In this document: piece by piece, positions 4,259-60,443 of the stretch | Layout: the number at the start of each line of letters is the position of its first letter | How positions within the stretch are numbered: position 1 is the stretch's first letter | From: Candidatus Promineifilum breve | GTDB taxonomy: Bacteria > Chloroflexota > Anaerolineae > Promineifilales > Promineifilaceae | Assembly: GCF_900066015.1 (NCBI RefSeq) | Contig: NZ_LN890655.1 | Span: 3,636,726 to 3,700,725 of the forward strand | DNA length: 64,000 nt | Direction: 5' to 3' | Notes under the pieces: model-generated | Told to the model about the DNA's origin: nothing | Seen by the model: only the letters and a program-made list of their open reading frames with translations | The model's database searches: none | Position numbers and translations under genes: made by a program

Positions 4259-4271
4259 GCAGCCTTCTCCA

Positions 4272-4347
4272 GAAGCAGGGGGGCGGGGGAGCAGGGGGGC
4301 AGGGGAGAATGATGCTCCCCCGCTCCCCTGCTCCCTTTCTCCCCTGC
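4272..4347. repeat. Inverted GGGGAGCA repeat (hairpin) between dppB and dppC
   Basis: Units of GGGGAGCAGGGG on the left are mirrored by CTCCCCTGCTCCC on the right, around a short centre near 4310. The transcript would fold into a long GC-rich hairpin between the two permease genes. It has no T-tract, so it may act as an mRNA-stability element rather than a terminator. Confidence 0.75.
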
Positions 4348-4348
4348 G

Positions 4349-5383: not shown

Positions 5384-5403
5384 GGGCAACGCTCCTTAGG
5401 AGC

Positions 5404-5476
5404 GCAGGGGAGCAGGGGAGCAGGGGAGCAGGGGTGATCTTTCTCCCCTGCTCCCCTGCTCCCTTTCTCCCCTGCT
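5404..5476. repeat. Inverted GGGGAGCA repeat (hairpin) between the lipoprotein gene and dppB
   Basis: Four tandem AGCAGGGG units at 5404-5434 face reverse-complement units at 5444-5476 around the centre TGATCTTT. It follows the solute-binding-protein gene directly. This is where 3'-protecting hairpins commonly sit in importer operons that need excess binding protein; that role is inferred. Confidence 0.78.
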
Positions 5477-8516: not shown

Positions 8517-8536
8517 TGGTGGATTCCTTTGTGTTG

Positions 8537-8607
8537 CAGGGGAGCAGGGGCGCAGGGGCGCAGGGGAAAACCCGCCACTCGCCACACGCCACTCGCTACC
8601 CGCCACC
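8537..8607. repeat. Mixed tandem repeats between ruvA and DUF5996
   Basis: A short AGCAGGGG/CGCAGGGG run (8537-8566) is followed by degenerate CGCCACT units (8570-8607). Both lie directly after the ruvA stop. Confidence 0.7.
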
Positions 8608-8610
8608 CCC

Positions 8611-9192
8611 TCACGCCTGATCCAGATATTGCAACGCCGCCGCGACACGCTCATCGATGGCCGCCACCTCGCGGGGGACGTGTTGCAGGGCGGCCTGGGC
8701 TTCAATGATGCTGAAACCGAGGCCGGTCAGGATGTCGATCACGTCGGCGTCCACGTCGCTGACCAGCGGCAAGGCGGTGGCCGGGCCGCCCAGGTCGAGT
8801 TTGTCGCGCAGGTGGAACATCATGCGCTCGGCCGTCTTCTTGCCGATGCCGGGCACGCGCTGCAAGATGGCCGTTTCCTCGCGCATGATGGCGCTCTTGA
8901 GCAGTTCGGGGCTGAGCGTGCCCAGGATCGACAACGCCACCCGCGGCCCCACGCCGTTGACGCCTAGCAGCACCTCGAACAGTTGCAGGTCTTCCTCGCT
9001 CTCGAAGCCAAAGAGTGACAGATCGTCCTCGCGCACCTGCAAATGGGTGTGGAGCGTAATCCGTCGCCCCACGCCGCCCACGTCCTCCAGCACCGTCCGC
9101 GGCACGTTGACGCGCACGCCCACCCCACCCACCTGGATGACCAGACTGTTAGGCTCGATTTTCTGTATGGTTCCGCTGAGTGAGGCAATCAT
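8611..9192 (-). CDS. ruvA: Holliday junction branch migration protein RuvA
   Basis: A 193-residue RuvA with all three domains. The N-terminal OB fold (MIASLSGTIQKI, residues 1-62) and two helix-hairpin-helix motifs bind four-way DNA junctions: FEVLLGVNGVGPRVAL near 75-95 and LQRVPGIGKKTAERM near 110-125. A C-terminal three-helix domain (VIDILTGLGFSIIEAQ) contacts the RuvB motor. RuvB is not in this window. It follows ruvC on the same strand, separated by about 125 bases of tandem repeat. Length is normal for the family. Confidence 0.96.
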   Translation of the reverse strand: MIASLSGTIQKIEPNSLVIQVGGVGVRVNVPRTVLEDVGGVGRRITLHTHLQVREDDLSLFGFESEEDLQLFEVLLGVNGVGPRVALSILGTLSPELLKSAIMREETAILQRVPGIGKKTAERMMFHLRDKLDLGGPATALPLVSDVDADVIDILTGLGFSIIEAQAALQHVPREVAAIDERVAAALQYLDQA

Positions 9193-9312
9193 TTCAAGTT
9201 ACGGGTGGCGAGTGGCAAGTAGCGTGTTGCGAGTGGCGGGTTGCGTGTGGCAAGTCATCAATGACGAGCTAAGTCTGAATTCCTAATTCGTAATTCGTAA
9301 TTCGTAATTATC
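9193..9312. repeat. Tandem repeats between ruvC and ruvA (GAGTGGC and GTAATTC families)
   Basis: Left part: degenerate GAGTGGCAAGT/GTGGCGA units (9193-9259). Right part: three to four copies of the 7-base unit TAATTCG (9283-9311). The second family recurs, inverted, at 58349-58380. Confidence 0.8.
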
Positions 9313-9317
9313 TTCCG

Positions 9318-9914
9318 TCATTTCTCTATCGCTTCTTCAAAGGCGACGTAACGGGCATGGGTTAGGGCGACGGCCAGGGCGTCGGCGGCGTCGTCGGGGT
9401 GGGGCGACTCCTCCAGATTGAGCAGGTGACGCACCATCAGTTGCATCTGCGCTTTCTCGGCCTTGCCGTAGCCGGTGATGGCTTCCTTGACCTTGGGCGG
9501 CGAGTATTCGCTGATGGGGATGCCGGCTTCGGCCAGGGCCAGCAGCAGCACCCCGCGCGCCTGCCCGACGGCGATGGCGGTGGTGATGTTGCGGCCGAAA
9601 AAGAGTTGCTCCACGGCGGCGCGGGTCGGCTGGTGGCGGGTCAGCAGGTCATTGAGCTGGCGGTAGATTGAGAGCAGCCGCGTTTCCGGCGCGTCCCCGG
9701 CCGGCGTCTCGATGACCCCAAAATCGACGAGATGGACATCACCATCTACCACGTCGATGACGCCATAGCCGGTCGTGGCTGTGCCGGGATCAAGGCCGAG
9801 GATGCGCAGGGGGGCAGGGGAGAAAGGGAGCAGGGGAGAAAGGGCGATCTTTTCTCCCGCGCTCCCCTGCCCCCCTGCTCCCTGACTCCTGTCAGGCCCC
9901 TGCATCCCCTGCAT
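9318..9914 (-). CDS. ruvC: Crossover junction endodeoxyribonuclease RuvC
   Basis: RuvC resolves Holliday junctions with RuvAB. The core starts [16 protein letters not shown], carrying the first catalytic Asp. [10 protein letters not shown] carries the catalytic Glu and [15 protein letters not shown] the C-terminal Asp pair. The usual Met of M-R-I-L-G is here a CTG codon at 9809. The first ATG in frame is 105 bases upstream at 9914, 4 bases after the yebC stop, with AGGAAG just before it (a second ATG is at 9905). If that ATG is used, the protein carries a 35-residue N-terminal extension encoded by intergenic GGGGAGCA repeat. Identity is certain; the start is not. Confidence 0.93.
9807..9887. 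repeat. Inverted GGGGAGCA repeat overlapping the ruvC 5' end
   Basis: The left arm has GGGGGGCAGGGGAGAAAGGGAGCAGGGG units, the right arm the reverse complement, and the centre is CGATCTTT. It sits between the ATG at 9914 and the first conserved RuvC residue. Confidence 0.8.
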
Positions 9915-9918
9915 CTTC

Positions 9919-10668
9919 CTACGCTTCCTCCATCGCTGCCAGGAGTTCGTCGCTCATCTCCAGCGCCGAATAGACGTTCTGCACGTCGTCCAGTTCCTCG
10001 ATGCGCTCGATGAGGTTCATCACCTGCATCGATTCGGCGTGGCTCAATTCCATGCGGTTGGTCGGGTCGAAGATGAGCGAGGACTCGTCCATCTTGTAGC
10101 CGGCCTCTTCCAAAGCTTCCTGGACGGCGCGGAACGACTCCAGTTCGACGTAGATCTCGGTGATGCCGTCGTTGAACTGCACGTCCTCGGCCCCGGCCTC
10201 GGCCGCCACCATGAACAGTTCGTCCTGATCGACCTCGTCGACAATGCTGATGTAGCCCTTGCGCTTGAATTGCCACGAGACGGCCCCGGCCTCGGCCATG
10301 TTGCCGCCGTATTTGCTGACGGCGTGGCGCACGTCGGCGATGGCCCGGTTGCGGTTGTCGGTGACGACCTCGACCAGCAGCCCCACGCTGTGCGGCGCGT
10401 AGGCTTCGTAGACAATATCGACCAGTTCGCCGCCCTCGATCTCGCCCGTGCCGCGCTTGATGGACTTTTCTATGTTGTCCTTGGGCATGTTGGCTTCTTT
10501 GGCCTTGGCTATGGCCAGACGCAAGGCGGTATTGGACACCGGATCGCCGCCCCCCTCGCGCGCGGCGATGGTGAGTTCCTTGGCGATGCGGGTGAAGACT
10601 TTGCCGCGTTTGGCGTCGCTGGCGGCCTTCTTGTGTTTAATGGTGGACCATTTGGAATGTCCGGACAT
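9919..10668 (-). CDS. yebC: YebC/PmpR family protein
   Basis: A 249-residue YebC-family protein beginning [23 protein letters not shown], the diagnostic N-terminus. Further landmarks are [17 protein letters not shown] near 70 and the acidic C-terminal domain. Family members act as transcription regulators or in translation of difficult sequences; the role here is unproven. I chose the ATG at 10668, preceded by GGAGAAGAG; the open frame upstream lacks conservation. It heads the yebC-ruvC-ruvA cluster, a common bacterial arrangement. Confidence 0.95.
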
Positions 10669-10726
10669 ATGCTCTTCTCCAAAAGGCGGTGACGCGCCGA
10701 TTTTGAGGTTGTGGTTTACAGCGAGT

Positions 10727-10732
10727 GAATTA
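10727..10732 (-). promoter_or_regulatory. Probable -10 element upstream of yebC
   Basis: The minus strand reads TGCTATAATTC here, a perfect TATAAT about 60 bases before the yebC ATG. No good -35 is visible, as at many promoters in this window. Confidence 0.5.
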
Positions 10733-10765
10733 TAGCACAGCAGGGACAAGGTGGCAGGTGGCAAG

Positions 10766-11860
10766 TTATTGATGCACCGGCCCCCGCCGATAGCGCCGCT
10801 CCTCGTCCGTCCGGTAGCCGGCCATGATGCGCGCCAGTTCGTCGCGCGGCAGGCCATGGGCCGTGCGCCCCCGCCAGCCGGTCATCGTCTCGGCGGCGAC
10901 CACGGCATTGAGGATCGACTCCTCCACCGCCTCGGCCGCGGCCACGAACATCGGGTTCAGATGGTGGTTGGGAACCATGCGCAGCACCGGCAAGCCGTCG
11001 CCGTCGGCCAGTTGGTTGCCGGTGGCGAAGGCCAGGAAGATGTCGCCGCTGCCGTTATGGCCCACGCCCCCGGCGCGGGCAAAGCCGACCGTCGCCCGTT
11101 TCGCCAGCCGGCGGCACTGATATGGCAGCAGCGGCGCGTCGGTGGCGATGACGATGAGGATGGAACTGCTACCGGCCGCCTCGTCCCAGGGCGTGGGCGT
11201 GGCGATCAGACGGCCGACGGGCACGCCATCCACCCGGAAATCCTCGCGCGAGCCGTGATTGGCCTGCACGAGCGCCCCGATCGTATAGGTGCCGCTCTTG
11301 GTCTCGACAATGCGCGACGACGTGCCGATACCCCCCTTGAACTCGTGGCAGATCATCCCCGTGCCGCCGCCGACGTTGCCCTCGGCCACCGGCCCATCGG
11401 CCGCGCCTTCCAGCGCGGTGTAGACGTGGGCGGCCCGCAGATGAAAGCCGTCCATGTCGTTGAGCCAGCCGTCCCACGTCTCGCCCACCACCGGCAGGCT
11501 GGAAGTTTCGGTGTAGCCGCGCTCCTGGGCATAGGCCACCAGCGCCTCGTGCACCGTGCCGACCTGATTGGTATTGGTCAGGGCGATGGGGTGGCTCAAC
11601 TGGCCCGACTCCTCGATCCACAGCAGGCCGGTCATCTCGCCGCAGCCGTTGAAGGAGTGATGGGCGGCAAAGGACGGGTTGCGCCAGCTCTCGCCGCCGT
11701 CGCGCGGCATGATGACCGTGACCCCCGTGCGGGCCACGCGCGGCTCGTCGTGGATGATCGTCGTGTGCCCGACGCGCACGCCGGCCACGTCGGTGATGGC
11801 ATTATGCGGCCCGGTGGGAAATTCGCCAATGGTGATGTTGAGGTCTCGTAGACGGGTCAT
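10766..11860 (-). CDS. P1 family peptidase (DmpA/L-aminopeptidase D-esterase type)
   Basis: A 364-residue member of the DmpA family, N-terminal-nucleophile enzymes that cleave themselves into two chains and then remove N-terminal residues from small peptides. The N-terminus DLNITIGEFPTGPHNAITDVAGVRVGHTT is typical up to the VRVGH segment. The GSSSILIVIATDAPLLP region near 235-250 is where I expect the autoproteolytic Gly-Ser site and the new nucleophile Ser; exact position is inferred by memory of the family. The ATG at 11860 has AGGAG 6 bases upstream. No signal peptide is seen. Confidence 0.88.
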   Translation of the reverse strand: MTRLRDLNITIGEFPTGPHNAITDVAGVRVGHTTIIHDEPRVARTGVTVIMPRDGGESWRNPSFAAHHSFNGCGEMTGLLWIEESGQLSHPIALTNTNQVGTVHEALVAYAQERGYTETSSLPVVGETWDGWLNDMDGFHLRAAHVYTALEGAADGPVAEGNVGGGTGMICHEFKGGIGTSSRIVETKSGTYTIGALVQANHGSREDFRVDGVPVGRLIATPTPWDEAAGSSSILIVIATDAPLLPYQCRRLAKRATVGFARAGGVGHNGSGDIFLAFATGNQLADGDGLPVLRMVPNHHLNPMFVAAAEAVEESILNAVVAAETMTGWRGRTAHGLPRDELARIMAGYRTDEERRYRRGPVHQ

Positions 11861-11988: not shown

Positions 11989-13071
11989 TTACTCTTGGAC
12001 TATGACGGCCGTCACCATACCAAACATACCGTGGGCGCTCTCGGCGTGGGTCAGGATGTGGCAATGGAAGGCCCAGATGCCGGGCGTGTGGGCCGTGACG
12101 ATGACGTCATACCGTTCGCCGGGGGCGATATTGAGCGTGTCGCACAGATAAGGCTGCGGCAGATTCCAGCCGTCCTTGGCGAAGACCAGTTGCTCCAGCC
12201 CGTGCAGATGCATCGGGTGGATGACCAGCCCTTCGTTCAGGTAGCGAATGCGAATCCTCTCGCCCAGTTTGGCGACGATGGGTTGGGTATAGGGGAAGCC
12301 CTTGGCGTTCAGGCTGAAGCCCGTGGCGGCGTCGTTGAGCACCAGCGAATAGTCGGAATCGAATTCGGGGTCTTGCGTTTTATCCTTCGGCTCGACGATG
12401 AACGCGCCGAACAACCCGCGCGTCACCTGCTCGGCGGCGTTGTGGTGCGAATGGTAGATGTGGGTGCCGGAGTTCTTGAGCTGGAATTCGTAGGTAAACG
12501 TTTCGCCGGGTCTGATCGGCGGTTGGGTGATGTAGGGCACGCCGTCCATATTGTTGGGCAGGATTACGCCGTGCCAATGGATGCTGGTGCTTTGCGTCAT
12601 GTCGTTCTTGACATTCACCCGAATCTTGTCGCCCTCGGTTACACGGATTTCCGGCCCGGGCACAATACCGTTGTAGCTCATGGCGTCGATGACCAGGTCG
12701 GGCGTCACTTCCCACGGCGTCTCGGCGCAGGTCAGTTCAAAGACCTTCACGTCGCCGTCCATGGTGAACTCCAGCGGCGTGCCCCAGAAGCCGGGGTTCT
12801 GGCCGATGCCGTCGACGAAGATCTTGATACCCGCTTCGTGCATGGCATCCATCTCGGCGGCAACGTCGGCGGCCGTCGTCGGCGCGGCTTCGGTCATCTC
12901 GTGCCCTACGGCCGTCGGCGGGACGGCCGTGGCCTGGGCCGCGGACTCCACGGCCGCCGGCAGCTCTTCCGGGGGGATGGCGCAGGCGGCCAGACCAACG
13001 CTCACGCCGGTCAATCCGGCGACCTTCAGAAAATTGCGGCGGGAAATACCCTCTTCAAGTACCTTGTTCAT
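11989..13071 (-). CDS. Two-domain multicopper oxidase, Tat-exported lipoprotein
   Basis: A 360-residue multicopper oxidase. The N-terminus has the twin-arginine motif SRRNFLK (10-16) and a Cys at 30 in a lipobox-like GLAAC, suggesting Tat export and lipid anchoring. Copper ligands are HWHG and HSHH in domain 1 and HPMHLHG and HCHILTHAESAHGMFGM in domain 2. The Cys of the type 1 copper site is found only in domain 2, the layout of type B two-domain laccase-like oxidases. About 100 residues between signal and cupredoxin domain 1 are Ala/Thr-rich. Substrate may be metal ions, phenols or nitrite-like compounds; I cannot tell. It is monocistronic, with a terminator behind it. Confidence 0.88.
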   Translation of the reverse strand: MNKVLEEGISRRNFLKVAGLTGVSVGLAACAIPPEELPAAVESAAQATAVPPTAVGHEMTEAAPTTAADVAAEMDAMHEAGIKIFVDGIGQNPGFWGTPLEFTMDGDVKVFELTCAETPWEVTPDLVIDAMSYNGIVPGPEIRVTEGDKIRVNVKNDMTQSTSIHWHGVILPNNMDGVPYITQPPIRPGETFTYEFQLKNSGTHIYHSHHNAAEQVTRGLFGAFIVEPKDKTQDPEFDSDYSLVLNDAATGFSLNAKGFPYTQPIVAKLGERIRIRYLNEGLVIHPMHLHGLEQLVFAKDGWNLPQPYLCDTLNIAPGERYDVIVTAHTPGIWAFHCHILTHAESAHGMFGMVTAVIVQE

Positions 13072-16332: not shown

Positions 16333-16373
16333 ATCAGGTGCGACGCACTTTCTGAAGTGCGTCGCACCTGATT
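16332..16373. repeat. GGTGCGACGCACTT palindrome, copy 2 (longest)
   Basis: Perfect 19-base arms (16332-16350 and 16355-16373) around a TCTG loop. It fills the whole gap between the convergent stops of the YitT gene and aspS and touches both stop codons. Position suggests a bidirectional transcript end. Confidence 0.9.
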
Positions 16374-17698
16374 TACGGCGAGACCCGGTTCAAGTCGCGT
16401 GGAAAAAGCGTCGCCAGCCGCAGATTGGGCAGGCCCAGCAATTGCATCAGCAGCCGCTCCAGCCCGATGGCGAAGCCGCCATGCGGCGGCATCCCGTAGC
16501 GAAACGCTTCCAGATAGGCCGTGAACGGTTCCGGGGAGTGGCCGGCCCGCGCCAGCGCGGCCAGGTAGTCGTCATAGCGATGCAGCCGCTGGCCGCCGGT
16601 CACCAGTTCCGTGCCGCGAAAGAGCAGGTCGAAGGAGTTGGAATAGGCCGGTCGCTGGGGGTCGGGGTGGGTGTAGAACGGCCGCTTGACCATCGGGTAG
16701 CCGCTGACGAAGAGGAAGTCGCTGCCATACTCCTGCCAGGCCCACTCGCCCAGCCGGCGCTCGTCCTGAGGCGACAGGTCCGGCTCACCGGCCGCGACGC
16801 TGCCCGCGTCGGCTCCATGCCGGGCCAGGATCAACTGTTGGGCGTCGGCGAAGTGGATGTGGGGGATTTGCGGCAGGATGACCGGCAGATTGGCCTCCAG
16901 CAGCGCCAGGTCGGCGGCGTAATGGGTCGTCAGATGGTCGAATATGCCGGCAATGACTTCCCGCAGGAGAGCCATCACAGTGAAGTGATCGTCGATGAAG
17001 CCGAACTCCACGTCCAGACTGACGTATTCGTTGATGTGGCGCACGGTGTCGTGCGGTTCGGCGCGGAAGACGGGGCCGACCTCGAAGACGCGCTCGAATA
17101 CGCCGACCATGATCTGCTTGTAGAATTGCGGGCTTTGGGCCAGATAGGCCGGGCGGCCGAAGTAATCGAGCTTGAAGACGTTGGCCCCGCTCTCGGTGGC
17201 CGAGGCGACGATTTTGGGCGTCTGCACTTCGGTGAAGTGGCGGGCGCTCAACGTAGCCCGAAAGCCGGCCATCGTCCCCGCCGCCAGCCGGAAGATGGCC
17301 CGTCGCGCCGGGTGGCGGTTGGCGACCACGGCATGATCCAGCAACGTGGGCAGGGCCGCGTTGAGCCGCTTCTTGGCCAGCGGCAGCGGCGACGCTTCCA
17401 GTACCGGCGTGACGACTTCCACCACCGGCTGTTGTAGCTCCAGCCCGTCGGGGGCCTGGGCGTTGGCGATGACCTGGCCGGTCAGGCGGATCACACTGCC
17501 CAGCGCCAAATCGGTCAGCGGCGCGAGATCGGCCTCGTTTTCGGTCACGGCCTGAATCGTGCCCCAGCCGTCGCGCAGCACGATGAAGTTGACCCCGCCC
17601 AACCGCCGCAGGTTGTGCAGCCAGCCTTGCAAACGGACTTGCTGCCCGATAAATTCATTGGCCTCAACGGTGCGGATGTCGTTCATGGGTGTTCTCAT
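16373..17698 (-). CDS. aspS: Aspartyl-tRNA synthetase, archaeal/short type
   Basis: A 441-residue class II synthetase that charges tRNA-Asp. The N-terminal OB fold (VRLQGWLHNLRRLGG, about 21-35) binds the anticodon. Motif 2 carries the FRAEPHDTVRHINEY segment and motif 3 the GIGLERLL-type arginine in FAIGLERLLMQLLGLPN. The C-terminus LFPRDLNRVSP fits AspRS rather than AsnRS. At about 440 residues it is the short archaeal type, lacking the insertion of the 590-residue bacterial enzyme; such enzymes may also mischarge tRNA-Asn, which the sequence alone does not settle. The start may be 17698 or the ATG at 17686; neither has a clear ribosome site. It follows greA. Confidence 0.92.
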   Translation of the reverse strand: MRTPMNDIRTVEANEFIGQQVRLQGWLHNLRRLGGVNFIVLRDGWGTIQAVTENEADLAPLTDLALGSVIRLTGQVIANAQAPDGLELQQPVVEVVTPVLEASPLPLAKKRLNAALPTLLDHAVVANRHPARRAIFRLAAGTMAGFRATLSARHFTEVQTPKIVASATESGANVFKLDYFGRPAYLAQSPQFYKQIMVGVFERVFEVGPVFRAEPHDTVRHINEYVSLDVEFGFIDDHFTVMALLREVIAGIFDHLTTHYAADLALLEANLPVILPQIPHIHFADAQQLILARHGADAGSVAAGEPDLSPQDERRLGEWAWQEYGSDFLFVSGYPMVKRPFYTHPDPQRPAYSNSFDLLFRGTELVTGGQRLHRYDDYLAALARAGHSPEPFTAYLEAFRYGMPPHGGFAIGLERLLMQLLGLPNLRLATLFPRDLNRVSP

Positions 17699-17717
17699 TT
17701 AGGCGAGGGCTGTGTAA

Positions 17718-17796
17718 GGGAGCAGGGGTGCAGGGGAGCAGGGGTGCAGGGGAGATTACGGCTCCCCTGCACCCCTGCTCCCCCGCTCCCCTGCGC
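17718..17796. repeat. Inverted AGCAGGGG repeat (hairpin) between greA and aspS
   Basis: Left arm units AGCAGGGGTGCAGGGG; the right arm is the reverse complement; the centre is AGATTACGGC. It starts directly after the greA stop. Confidence 0.78.
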
Positions 17797-17797
17797 C

Positions 17798-23611: not shown

Positions 23612-23934
23612 ATCTATCTCTTCTCCTTGCAATTACGGAACGTTAAGGTAAGCAGGGGCAATTCGTTGGGTGGAAAGGTCGGGTATTTTGTCAATAACTA
23701 AGCATCCGGCGTACCACGGACTTTCCTTCACCCCATCCTCTGCCCGCACTTCCAAAGTCTATTGTGGCGCAAGATGCGGGAAATGACAACAAATATTCAC
23801 TAAATGTAGGGCGGGTTGGCAACCCGCCCTCTGCCATTGCTATCGTGCCGGGATACCATCGCGCCGACCAAAATGTAGGGCGGGTTGGCAACCCGCCCTC
23901 TTCCGTTGCTGCCGGGGCGGGATACCATCCCGCC
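23612..23934. repeat. Gap with two GTAGGGCGGGTTGGCAACC hairpins
   Basis: No gene. Two near-identical copies (23806-23831 and 23875-23900) each form a GGGCGGGTT-GGC-AACCCGCCC hairpin. A third, larger dyad pairs AATGTAGGGCGGG with CCCGCCCTACATT at 23928-23942. The last unit supplies the TAG stop of the esterase gene. The BMP promoter should lie near 23640-23700; a TTGACA is visible there on the minus strand without a clear -10. Confidence 0.75.
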
Positions 23935-34841: not shown

Positions 34842-34867
34842 AGTGTTATCTCCTCAAAGATTAAGGA

Positions 34868-34984
34868 GAATCCACAGATTACACAGATTTCACAGATTTG
34901 AAGAAGTGGTTAGTCCAAATACTGATCAGTGTCCACTGTCTACTCTCTTCAATCTGAGAAATCTGTGAAATCTGTGGTTTCTCT
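34868..34984. repeat. ACAGATTT-type inverted repeat between transketolase-C and aminotransferase genes
   Basis: AATCCACAGATTACACAGATTTC... at the left is mirrored by AATCTGTGAAATCTGTGG at the right, with a CAGTGTCCACTGTC segment in the centre. Confidence 0.8.
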
Positions 34985-34988
34985 TTTC

Positions 34989-35927: not shown

Positions 35928-35942
35928 AATAAATCCCAGATT

Positions 35943-36017
35943 TTTGATCCGCAGATTACGCAGATTTCGCAGATTTCAATTCTGTAATCTGCGAAATCTG
36001 CGTAATCTGCGGATCAT
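35943..36017. repeat. GATCCGCAGATTACGCAGATTTC palindrome between the transketolase genes
   Basis: Three CGCAGATT units (35948-35978) are followed by their near-perfect mirror (35984-36014), giving arms of about 30 bases, between the two transketolase subunit genes. Confidence 0.88.
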
Positions 36018-36026
36018 ATCTTCTCT

Positions 36027-36896: not shown

Positions 36897-36907
36897 GGTT
36901 ATTGTCC

Positions 36908-36996
36908 CGAAAACGAGTTTTTTCTTGAAAACTCGGTTTCTAATAGACTCATCAGTTCTAGAAACCGAGTTTTCAAGAAAAAACTCGGTTTCTAGA
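36908..36996. repeat. GAAACCGAGTTTT inverted repeat between spsF-like and transketolase genes
   Basis: Left arm 36908-36942 (CGAAAACGAGTTTTTTCTTG onward); right arm 36959-36996 reads its complement. The right end contributes the CTA that is the stop codon of the cytidylyltransferase gene. Confidence 0.88.
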
Positions 36997-42492: not shown

Positions 42493-42587
42493 ACACGGAT
42501 AGGACACGGATAAAACGGATGAAACGGATTGATCGATCCGCTCAATCCGTCACATCCGTGTAATCCGTGTCCTATCCGTGTTTAATT
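42487..42587. repeat. ACACGGAT-type long palindrome between convergent genes
   Basis: About 45-base imperfect arms built from ACGGAT units (AATTAAACACGGATAGGACAC at the outer left, complement at the outer right) with TGATCGATC at the centre. It begins in the stop region of the pump gene and ends before the DUF309 gene, so it may end transcription in both directions. Confidence 0.88.
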
Positions 42588-42608
42588 TCTTTATCGCCCA
42601 CAGCCATC

Positions 42609-43448: not shown

Positions 43449-43585
43449 ATAGTGGTCAGTGGGCAGTGGACAGTGGGCAGTGGGTCGCTGTCGCAATCGC
43501 AATCGCTATCGTTCTTCAGCATTCAGCAGTGAGTGGCCTCTTCATTCGTCATTCGTCATTCGTCATTCGTCATTCGTCATTGCCA
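43449..43585. repeat. CAGTGGG and CATTCGT 7-base tandem repeats
   Basis: Four CAGTGGG/CAGTGGA units (43453-43484), an ATCGCA-type run, then five perfect copies of CATTCGT (43545-43579). It lies directly after the isochorismatase stop. Confidence 0.85.
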
Positions 43586-51009: not shown

Positions 51010-51017
51010 TTTGAAGA

Positions 51018-51066
51018 AGTGGACAGTGGGCAGTGGTCAGTTACTGACCACTGCCCACTGTCCACT
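51018..51066. repeat. CAGTGGT-family perfect palindrome between convergent genes
   Basis: Perfect 24-base arms (51018-51041 and 51043-51066) around a single T. It sits between the small membrane-protein gene and the M32 gene, a likely bidirectional transcript end. Confidence 0.9.
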
Positions 51067-51077
51067 GCCCACTATTC

Positions 51078-58332: not shown

Positions 58333-58348
58333 AATTACCCTGTGAAAA

Positions 58349-58457
58349 TTACGAATTACGAATTACGAATTACGAATGAAGAACGTTGTTCGCGGGCGGG
58401 CGATTCTTTTTTACTGACCACAGACCACTGACCACAGACCACTACCCACTGTCCACT
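58349..58457. repeat. AATTACG tandem repeats and CAGTGGT-family repeats
   Basis: Four perfect copies of the 7-base unit AATTACG (58349-58376), then CTGACCACAGACCACTGACCAC units (58414-58457). They separate the CAP gene from the E1 gene. Confidence 0.88.
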
Positions 58458-60356: not shown

Positions 60357-60440
60357 GCGACCACGGACGACGGACCACAGACACTTGCTTTTATGTGGCC
60401 TGTGGTCCGTCGGTCGTCTGTCGTCCGTGGTCCGTCGTCG
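60357..60440. repeat. GACCACGGACGACGGACC inverted repeat
   Basis: Units of GACGGACCACAGAC face GTGGTCCGTCGGTCGTC units around a CTTGCTTTTATGTGG centre, between the dynamin-like gene and the next gene. Confidence 0.8.
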
Positions 60441-60443
60441 CTC

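What the first reader, a model, noticed from the sequence alone, without database searches (positions are those of the whole stretch)
9193..9312. Short tandem repeats with 7-8 base period resemble cyanobacterial STRRs
Units TAATTCG, AATTACG, CATTCGT, CAGTGGT and AGCAGGGG recur at more than a dozen junctions. Heptanucleotide STRR families of similar sequence are known from filamentous cyanobacteria; from memory several of these units are common in Nostoc-type genomes. Presence in a Chloroflexota-like genome would mean convergent expansion or shared mobile origin.
Basis: partly seen in the sequence, partly recalled or inferred. Interest (0 to 1): 0.6.

Follow-up and report, generated by a model that had tools for sequence, protein, structure and literature searches.

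The report
Paired 7-9-base repeats between bacterial genes
Between many genes this bacterium carries short runs of repeated 7- to 9-letter words, usually as a purine-rich run followed by a pyrimidine-rich run that can fold into a hairpin; runs of this kind are known from cyanobacteria, but how they spread between sites and change their words so quickly is unexplained.

Summary
The arrays are real. The stretch fills the ruvC-ruvA gap (9193-9317): a degenerate (GTGGCGA)n array, then (TAATTCG)3.7. In the window 19 of 45 gaps carry 7-9-nt arrays (shuffled mean 0.14). Only periods 7, 8 and 9 are enriched, in gaps, and there are few between divergent genes. (TAATTCG)3 and (AGCAGGGG)3 also occur in 13 and 10 of 117 cyanobacterial genomes, with no hit for the reversed patterns. 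The whole word repertoire is not clearly shared once composition is controlled (2 classes, 0.75 expected, P 0.17). So 'STRR-like' holds; 'shared origin' is unproven.

In this lineage array gaps usually fold into strong hairpins (40 of 61; cyanobacteria 3 of 24). The yebC|ruvC hairpin persists across the family although most sequences do not align. In Planktothrix, arrays and words turn over between close species. The genome has no RVT_1 reverse transcriptase; its best RAYT-like gene is flanked by other palindromes. Best reading: a hairpin-forming variant of known intergenic heptamer repeats; function unproven.

The parts
9193..9317 (.). ruvC|ruvA gap, filled by two arrays of unlike words; no significant hairpin in the sense orientation (z +1.3)
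9197..9255 (+). degenerate (GTGGCGA)n array, purine-rich on the + strand
   Evidence: TRF
9278..9309 (+). (TAATTCG) array, 3.7 exact copies at 9284-9309, pyrimidine-leaning on the + strand; 91 overlapping genome-wide matches to AATTCGTAATTCGTAATT
8611..9192 (-). ruvA
   Evidence: Pfam RuvA_N
9318..9914 (-). ruvC frame; the conserved RuvC part ends near 9812 and the rest of the frame lies in the next array
   Evidence: Pfam RuvC residues 38-186; relatives
9806..9882 (.). yebC|ruvC gap: (GCAGGGGA)n facing its inverted copy, hairpin z -5.7
9919..10857 (-). yebC frame (YebC/TACO1 domains from residue 68)
   Evidence: Pfam
8517..8610 (.). gap after ruvA: (GGGGCGCA)n 8-mer array and (ACTCGCC)n 7-mer array
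4259..4348 (.). hairpin of 8-mer arrays
5384..5476 (.). hairpin of (GCAGGGGA)n arrays, -76 to -81 kcal/mol
17687..17797 (.). hairpin of 8-mer arrays with alternating AGC/TGC words, -82 to -84 kcal/mol
34842..34988 (.). 9-mer (CACAGATTT) hairpin with 7-mer (AGTGGAC-type) material nested inside
35928..36026 (.). 9-mer (CGCAGATTW) near-perfect hairpin
42493..42608 (.). 9-mer (ACGGATAAA-type) hairpin between convergent genes
43449..43585 (.). (AATGACG)n and (AGTGGGC)n arrays
51010..51077 (.). 7-mer (AGTGGNC) hairpin between convergent genes; word variants paired in order
58333..58455 (.). (AGTGGTC)n then (AATTCGT)n in gene direction, two unlike words
60365..60443 (.). degenerate GACGACG/GACCACG 7-mer hairpin

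Best explanation
These are intergenic short tandem repeats of the STRR kind, in a variant in which two arrays of 7-9-nt words usually stand head to head, purine-rich array first and pyrimidine-rich array second, and in this lineage are often complementary so that the gap folds into a long hairpin. Each genome uses a small set of words at many sites. Arrays grow, shrink and vanish in place (inferred: replication slippage and recombination between copies), and words are copied from site to site within a genome (shown as repetition; the copying route is unknown). They persist at gene 3' ends and co-directional junctions because promoters are not there and because a hairpin after a stop codon is tolerated or useful, for example for transcript ends or mRNA stability (inferred). 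The ruvC-ruvA copy joins two unlike words, has no significant hairpin, and is most likely a tolerated spacer.
For: Only periods 7-9 are enriched in gaps: own p7 51, p8 16, p9 45 against 2-6 for p5, 6, 10-13 and 0-1 in shuffles; the 45 at p14 are double units. Share of gap bases in arrays: convergent 17.4%, co-directional 11.2%, divergent 1.5%. Identical-word array pairs 244 against a null mean of 1.8. Purine-first in 29 of 30 two-kind gaps, also with unrelated words (13 against 1). Hairpins (z<-3) in 40 of 61 array gaps of own plus family against 1 of 116 own and 3 of 57 family coding windows. At yebC|ruvC z<-2 in 15 of 19 genomes against 3 of 19 coding controls, while 171 gap pairs have a median alignment z of 0.33. 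Planktothrix: of 79 gap comparisons with an array in at least one genome, 60 have it in one only, 6 differ in word, 13 share, with an in-place growth series at gap 21.
Against: Plain slippage predicts neither the same words at hundreds of sites nor the 29:1 order. Hairpin arms match in word order only moderately better than with shuffled order (Stouffer 3.4 over 26 non-independent pairs, 2 of 26 individually at P<=0.05). Single-array gaps show no order rule. Hairpins are also frequent in gaps without arrays (own co-directional 22 of 83), so the arrays are not the only source. In divergent gaps the count with arrays differs only modestly (60 of 213 against 6 of 46, P 0.04). No expression data were available.
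Confidence: 0.5

Rival explanations
1. Mobile palindromic elements (REP/REPIN or MITE) moved by a transposase, whose arms happen to be periodic.
For: The own genome has 3 Y1_Tnp genes. Many AATTCGT arrays share an inner boundary (GCGCTCTTCATTCG) and nested 9-mer/7-mer composites recur at several sites with similar centres. A Planktothrix composite of about 80 bp matches many other places at 80-90%.
Against: The best RAYT-like gene (L293) is flanked by other short palindromes and none of the 7-9-nt words; no such words were seen beside the other two either. Linkers between arrays vary from site to site. Same-gap word switches in Planktothrix are not what insertion of a fixed element gives. The boundary 6-mers are not significant over all words.
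Confidence: 0.22
2. The arrays are selected transcription terminators or intercistronic RNA hairpins, with selection rather than mutation setting their place and shape.
For: Density follows the number of gene 3' ends (convergent over co-directional over divergent); the yebC|ruvC hairpin is kept while its sequence is replaced.
Against: A run of four T within 15 nt of the outer end occurs in 3 of 60 flanks, so they are not ordinary intrinsic terminators; many sit inside an apparent operon; the ruvC|ruvA copy does not fold; cyanobacterial array gaps mostly do not fold.
Confidence: 0.2
3. Templated end addition: a telomerase-like reverse transcriptase adds purine-rich words to 3' ends at breaks, which are then joined head to head.
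For: 7-9-nt words, fixed head-to-head purine order and genome-specific vocabulary resemble fused telomere ends.
Against: No RVT_1 match in this genome, listed as 99.96% complete, in 3 contigs; no template RNA was found or sought further.
Confidence: 0.03
4. Recent horizontal exchange of the arrays between cyanobacteria and this lineage.
For: (TAATTCG)3 and (AGCAGGGG)3 occur in both groups and co-occur in 9 cyanobacterial genomes, with 0 reversed controls.
Against: Repertoires as a whole are not shared beyond composition; the unit is also in Bacteroidota, Acidobacteria and others; architecture differs.
Confidence: 0.05

Closest known systems
Cyanobacterial STRR (heptanucleotide short tandemly repeated repetitive sequences; Calothrix, Nostoc; recalled, and cited in the introduction of PMC4692102, read)
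   Same: 7-nt tandem units, intergenic, dispersed in many copies; at least two words in common
   Different: 8- and 9-nt words are also abundant here; arrays mostly form complementary head-to-head hairpins (40 of 61 against 3 of 24 in Nostoc and Calothrix)
GGGNATC heptamer repeats of Xanthomonas and Nostoc (Rehm 2015, PMC4692102; abstract and four sections read)
   Same: G-rich strand after stop codons and on the non-coding strand before starts, 'inverted repeat pair' type, few between divergent genes, variation between relatives
   Different: there one G-rich word family able to form quadruplexes; here the order holds for many words, including ones with no G-run such as AATTCGT
TAACTGA repeats of Beggiatoaceae, Cyanobacteria and Bacteroidetes (MacGregor 2015, PMC4679880; abstract and section 10 read)
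   Same: a heptamer shared between distant phyla; copy changes in 7-nt steps; unexplained spread
   Different: direct arrays, mostly just upstream of start codons in the main genome; another word; Chloroflexota not among the groups reported in the parts read
REP/REPIN with RAYT (PMC3733652 and PMC3116915, search listing only)
   Same: intergenic palindromes in many copies
   Different: no 7-9-nt words beside the RAYT-like genes

Membership tests
STRR (intergenic heptamer short tandem repeats) | tandem array of a 7-nt unit, intergenic | tested here: met
STRR (intergenic heptamer short tandem repeats) | same unit dispersed at many sites of the genome | tested here: met
   91 overlapping matches of AATTCGTAATTCGTAATT; 244 identical-word pairs against 1.8
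STRR (intergenic heptamer short tandem repeats) | units shared with heterocystous cyanobacteria | tested here: inconclusive
   single words yes; repertoire not beyond composition
G-quadruplex heptamer repeats (Rehm 2015) | four G-runs per array | tested here: not met
   TAATTCG has no G-run; the GCAGGGGA arrays could qualify but were not assayed
G-quadruplex heptamer repeats (Rehm 2015) | strand order relative to neighbouring genes | tested here: met
   purine-first 29 of 30 two-kind gaps
REP/REPIN-RAYT | same palindromes flank the RAYT gene | tested here: not met
   flanks of three own Y1_Tnp genes inspected; the best one has other palindromes
Intrinsic terminator | GC-rich hairpin followed by a U-run | tested here: not met
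   TTTT in 3 of 60 outer flanks; hairpin present in 40 of 61
Insertion element or MITE | target-site duplication and precise empty site | tested here: inconclusive
   gaps lacking an array are common in Planktothrix (60 of 79), but target duplications were not scored
RT-templated repeat addition | a reverse transcriptase in the genome | tested here: not met
   no RVT_1 match in G000

The most novel reading that the evidence does not exclude
A cross-phylum but genome-specific vocabulary of 7-9-nt words is written into gene junctions in a fixed head-to-head order (purine first) by a trans-acting process that is neither RVT_1 reverse transcription nor the resident RAYTs; words at a given junction are replaced wholesale between close species while the architecture, in some lineages a hairpin, is kept.
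Probability: 0.2. Interest if true: 0.75.

Novelty: new variant of a known kind. Interest (0 to 1): 0.5.

Why it matters
Intergenic heptamer repeats have been described piecemeal, one word at a time (GGGNATC, TAACTGA), and the papers read call their function or spread unexplained. The order rule across many unlike words, the restriction to periods 7-9, and a hairpin kept at a junction while its sequence changes make the phenomenon testable as one thing: either a mutational process with a 7-9-nt step, or selection for a structure that any word can supply.

Tried and rejected
RT-templated (telomerase-like) origin: attractive because of the order rule, rejected for RVT_1 enzymes since the genome has none. 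RAYT mobilisation of these arrays: the best RAYT-like gene has other palindromes beside it. Intrinsic terminator: no U-run. A common boundary motif (GAAGAGC core): clear by eye for the AATTCGT arrays (26 shown) but not significant over all words, so not claimed. General sharing of words with cyanobacteria: not beyond composition. Order-preserving complementarity of arms: only moderate. Relation to triplex motifs (PMC4666352, abstract and one section read) was considered; no test made. Literature: no paper held at least four of five terms on heptanucleotide repeats in Chloroflexi/Anaerolineae, and a search for Promineofilum and repeats gave two papers that I did not open; the library lacks most subscription journals, so absence in print is not shown.

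Caveats: genes were called by my own simple caller, which mis-sets some starts (ruvC was called from 9752), and gap edges are approximate; windows, gaps and arrays within a genome are not fully independent; hairpin z-scores use shuffles (mononucleotide, dinucleotide); conserved relatives are MAGs with gaps. For the ortholog gaps, 34 of 40 relatives had RuvC, 30 loci were fetched, and 20 (own, genus, family) were used; one (L015) dropped out of yebC|ruvC because its gap is 20 nt. For Planktothrix 9 of 10 genomes were used; G297 was left out because its match lies on two contigs.

Full report
Observation. The stretch fills the gap between ruvC and ruvA, in an apparent yebC-ruvC-ruvA operon on the minus strand (Pfam). 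On the plus strand it reads a degenerate 7-nt array of GTGGCGA type (9197-9255), a linker, and (TAATTCG)3.7. The window has 19 of 45 gaps with 7-9-nt arrays; shuffled gaps give 0.14 on average and at most 2.

Scale. I took 20 stretches of 20 kb from the window's genome and, with the window, 464 kb were analysed. Exact arrays: period 7, 26; period 8, 11; period 9, 9; periods 4-6 and 10-13 together 7; Markov-4 copies give almost none. Fuzzy arrays in gaps show the same (p7 51, p8 16, p9 45; others 2-6, apart from p14 = 45, which is the double unit), and coding sequence has a tenth of that or less at p7 and a sixth at p9. The share of gap bases in arrays is 17.4% between convergent genes, 11.2% between co-directional genes and 1.5% between divergent genes. 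By count of gaps the contrast is weaker: 60 of 213 against 6 of 46, P 0.04.

Vocabulary. The same word recurs at many sites: 112 arrays, 48 words, 244 identical-word pairs against a null mean of 1.8. The vocabulary changes between genomes. The 9-mer word CRCAGATTW has 138 overlapping matches in this genome and none in the congener G004, while G004 has 47 matches of (TAATTCG)3 to this genome's 32. In Chloroflexota (TAATTCG)3 is in 6 of 251 genomes and the 9-mer in 6 of 151.

Comparison with cyanobacteria. (TAATTCG)3 is in 13 and (AGCAGGGG)3 in 10 of 117 cyanobacterial genomes, 9 of them the same (P 8e-10); reversed controls are 0 throughout. When own words are compared with those in 760 kb of Nostoc, Calothrix and Planktothrix, 2 classes are shared against 0.75 expected from permuted letters (P 0.17; weighted P 0.03; with a looser array cut-off 2 against 2.3, P 0.70). 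So a few words are strikingly shared, but sharing is not general.

Order rule. Scoring each array by purine content on the plus strand, arrays in the left half of a gap are purine-rich and in the right half pyrimidine-rich (own 40/13 against 11/43; Calothrix 23/12 against 8/27; Nostoc 20/12 against 9/16; family not significant). By gap, purine-first to pyrimidine-first is 29:1 in the own genome, 15:1 in Calothrix, 9:1 in Nostoc, 4:0 in the family and 2:0 in the genus; single-array gaps show no rule. It holds for pairs of unlike words too (13 against 1 in the own genome, 13 against 3 in Calothrix), and between convergent genes of the own genome it is 16 of 16 arrays, where no start codon is present; Calothrix convergent gaps do not follow it. 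For one G-rich word family the same placement was reported in Xanthomonas and Nostoc (PMC4692102, sections read).

Hairpins. In this lineage the two arrays are often complementary. Gaps with arrays fold with z<-3 in 21 of 35 co-directional and 7 of 10 convergent gaps of the own genome, and in 11 of 14 and 1 of 2 of the family, together 40 of 61; in Nostoc and Calothrix 3 of 24 (P 9e-6). Coding windows give 1 of 116 (own) and 3 of 57 (family). Gaps without arrays also fold fairly often (22 of 83 co-directional), so hairpins are a wider feature of these junctions. Arms match in word order moderately better than with permuted order.

Orthologous junctions. The yebC|ruvC gap has z<-2 in 1 of 1 own, 2 of 5 genus and 12 of 13 family genomes, against 3 of 19 coding controls. 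Yet 171 pairs of these gaps have a median alignment z of 0.33, with 12 above 4: for example GTAGTGC words in one genus, AAGGATG in another, AATTATG in a third, 9-mers in a fourth. The ruvC|ruvA gap, which is the finding itself, is not a hairpin in the own genome (z +1.3), and its folding is not conserved.

Turnover. In Planktothrix, 253 comparisons of orthologous gaps between 9 genomes give 174 with no array, 60 with an array in one genome only, 13 with a shared word and 6 with different words (homologous genomes are counted more than once). At one gap the array is AATTCGT in two genomes and CATTACC (13 copies) in a third with the same flanks; at another, AATTCGT, ATAACTG or none; at a third, one or two copies of a CTGACTC-like seed in four genomes have grown to several in two.

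Machinery. The genome has three Y1_Tnp (RAYT-like) genes, but the best of them is flanked by other short palindromes, and no 7-9-nt words were seen beside the other two. It has no RVT_1 match at all, which removes the reverse-transcriptase version of a telomere-like origin.

Reading. Shown: the arrays, their period, place, order, folding, and rapid change. Inferred: slippage and recombination as the source of length change, copying of words between sites by an unknown route, and a role of the folded forms in transcripts.

Noticed in passing
9806-9914 and G004 (L010): The conserved start of RuvC reads CCCCTGCGC in this genome and in G004 where other relatives have ATGCGC; the array abuts the start, so ruvC may begin with CTG or inside the array.
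   Followed up: partly
L293 (G000:C2:282901-286200): A RAYT-like Y1_Tnp gene is flanked by dense short palindromes (CCGTGGGATAAATCCCACG, AACCGGCTGAAGCCGGTT and a GCGGCGGATTTGAATCCGCC type), a REP-like system distinct from the 7-9-nt arrays.
   Followed up: partly
36897-36991: Non-periodic palindrome of AAACCGAGTTT...AAACTCGGTTT type; a similar palindrome lies beside a RAYT-like gene of the congener G002 (L300), so it may be a REP of that family.
   Followed up: no
L263-L292 and window 58333-58455: Many AATTCGT arrays begin, on the side of the gap centre, with GCGCTCTTCATTCG, and the facing array often ends GAATGAAGAGCGC, as if around a palindromic core; not significant over all words.
   Followed up: partly
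34842-34988; L162 about 16590-16770; L169 about 12810-12960: Composite hairpins: outer 9-mer arms (CACAGATTT) with 7-mer AGTGG-type arms nested inside, with similar centres at two of the sites.
   Followed up: no
23802-23934: Two tandem copies of a 69-nt unit holding GGCGGGTT...AACCCGCC palindromes.
   Followed up: no
16333-16372: A 40-nt gap between convergent genes that is one palindrome, ATCAGGTGCGACGCACTT...AAGTGCGTCGCACCTGAT.
   Followed up: no
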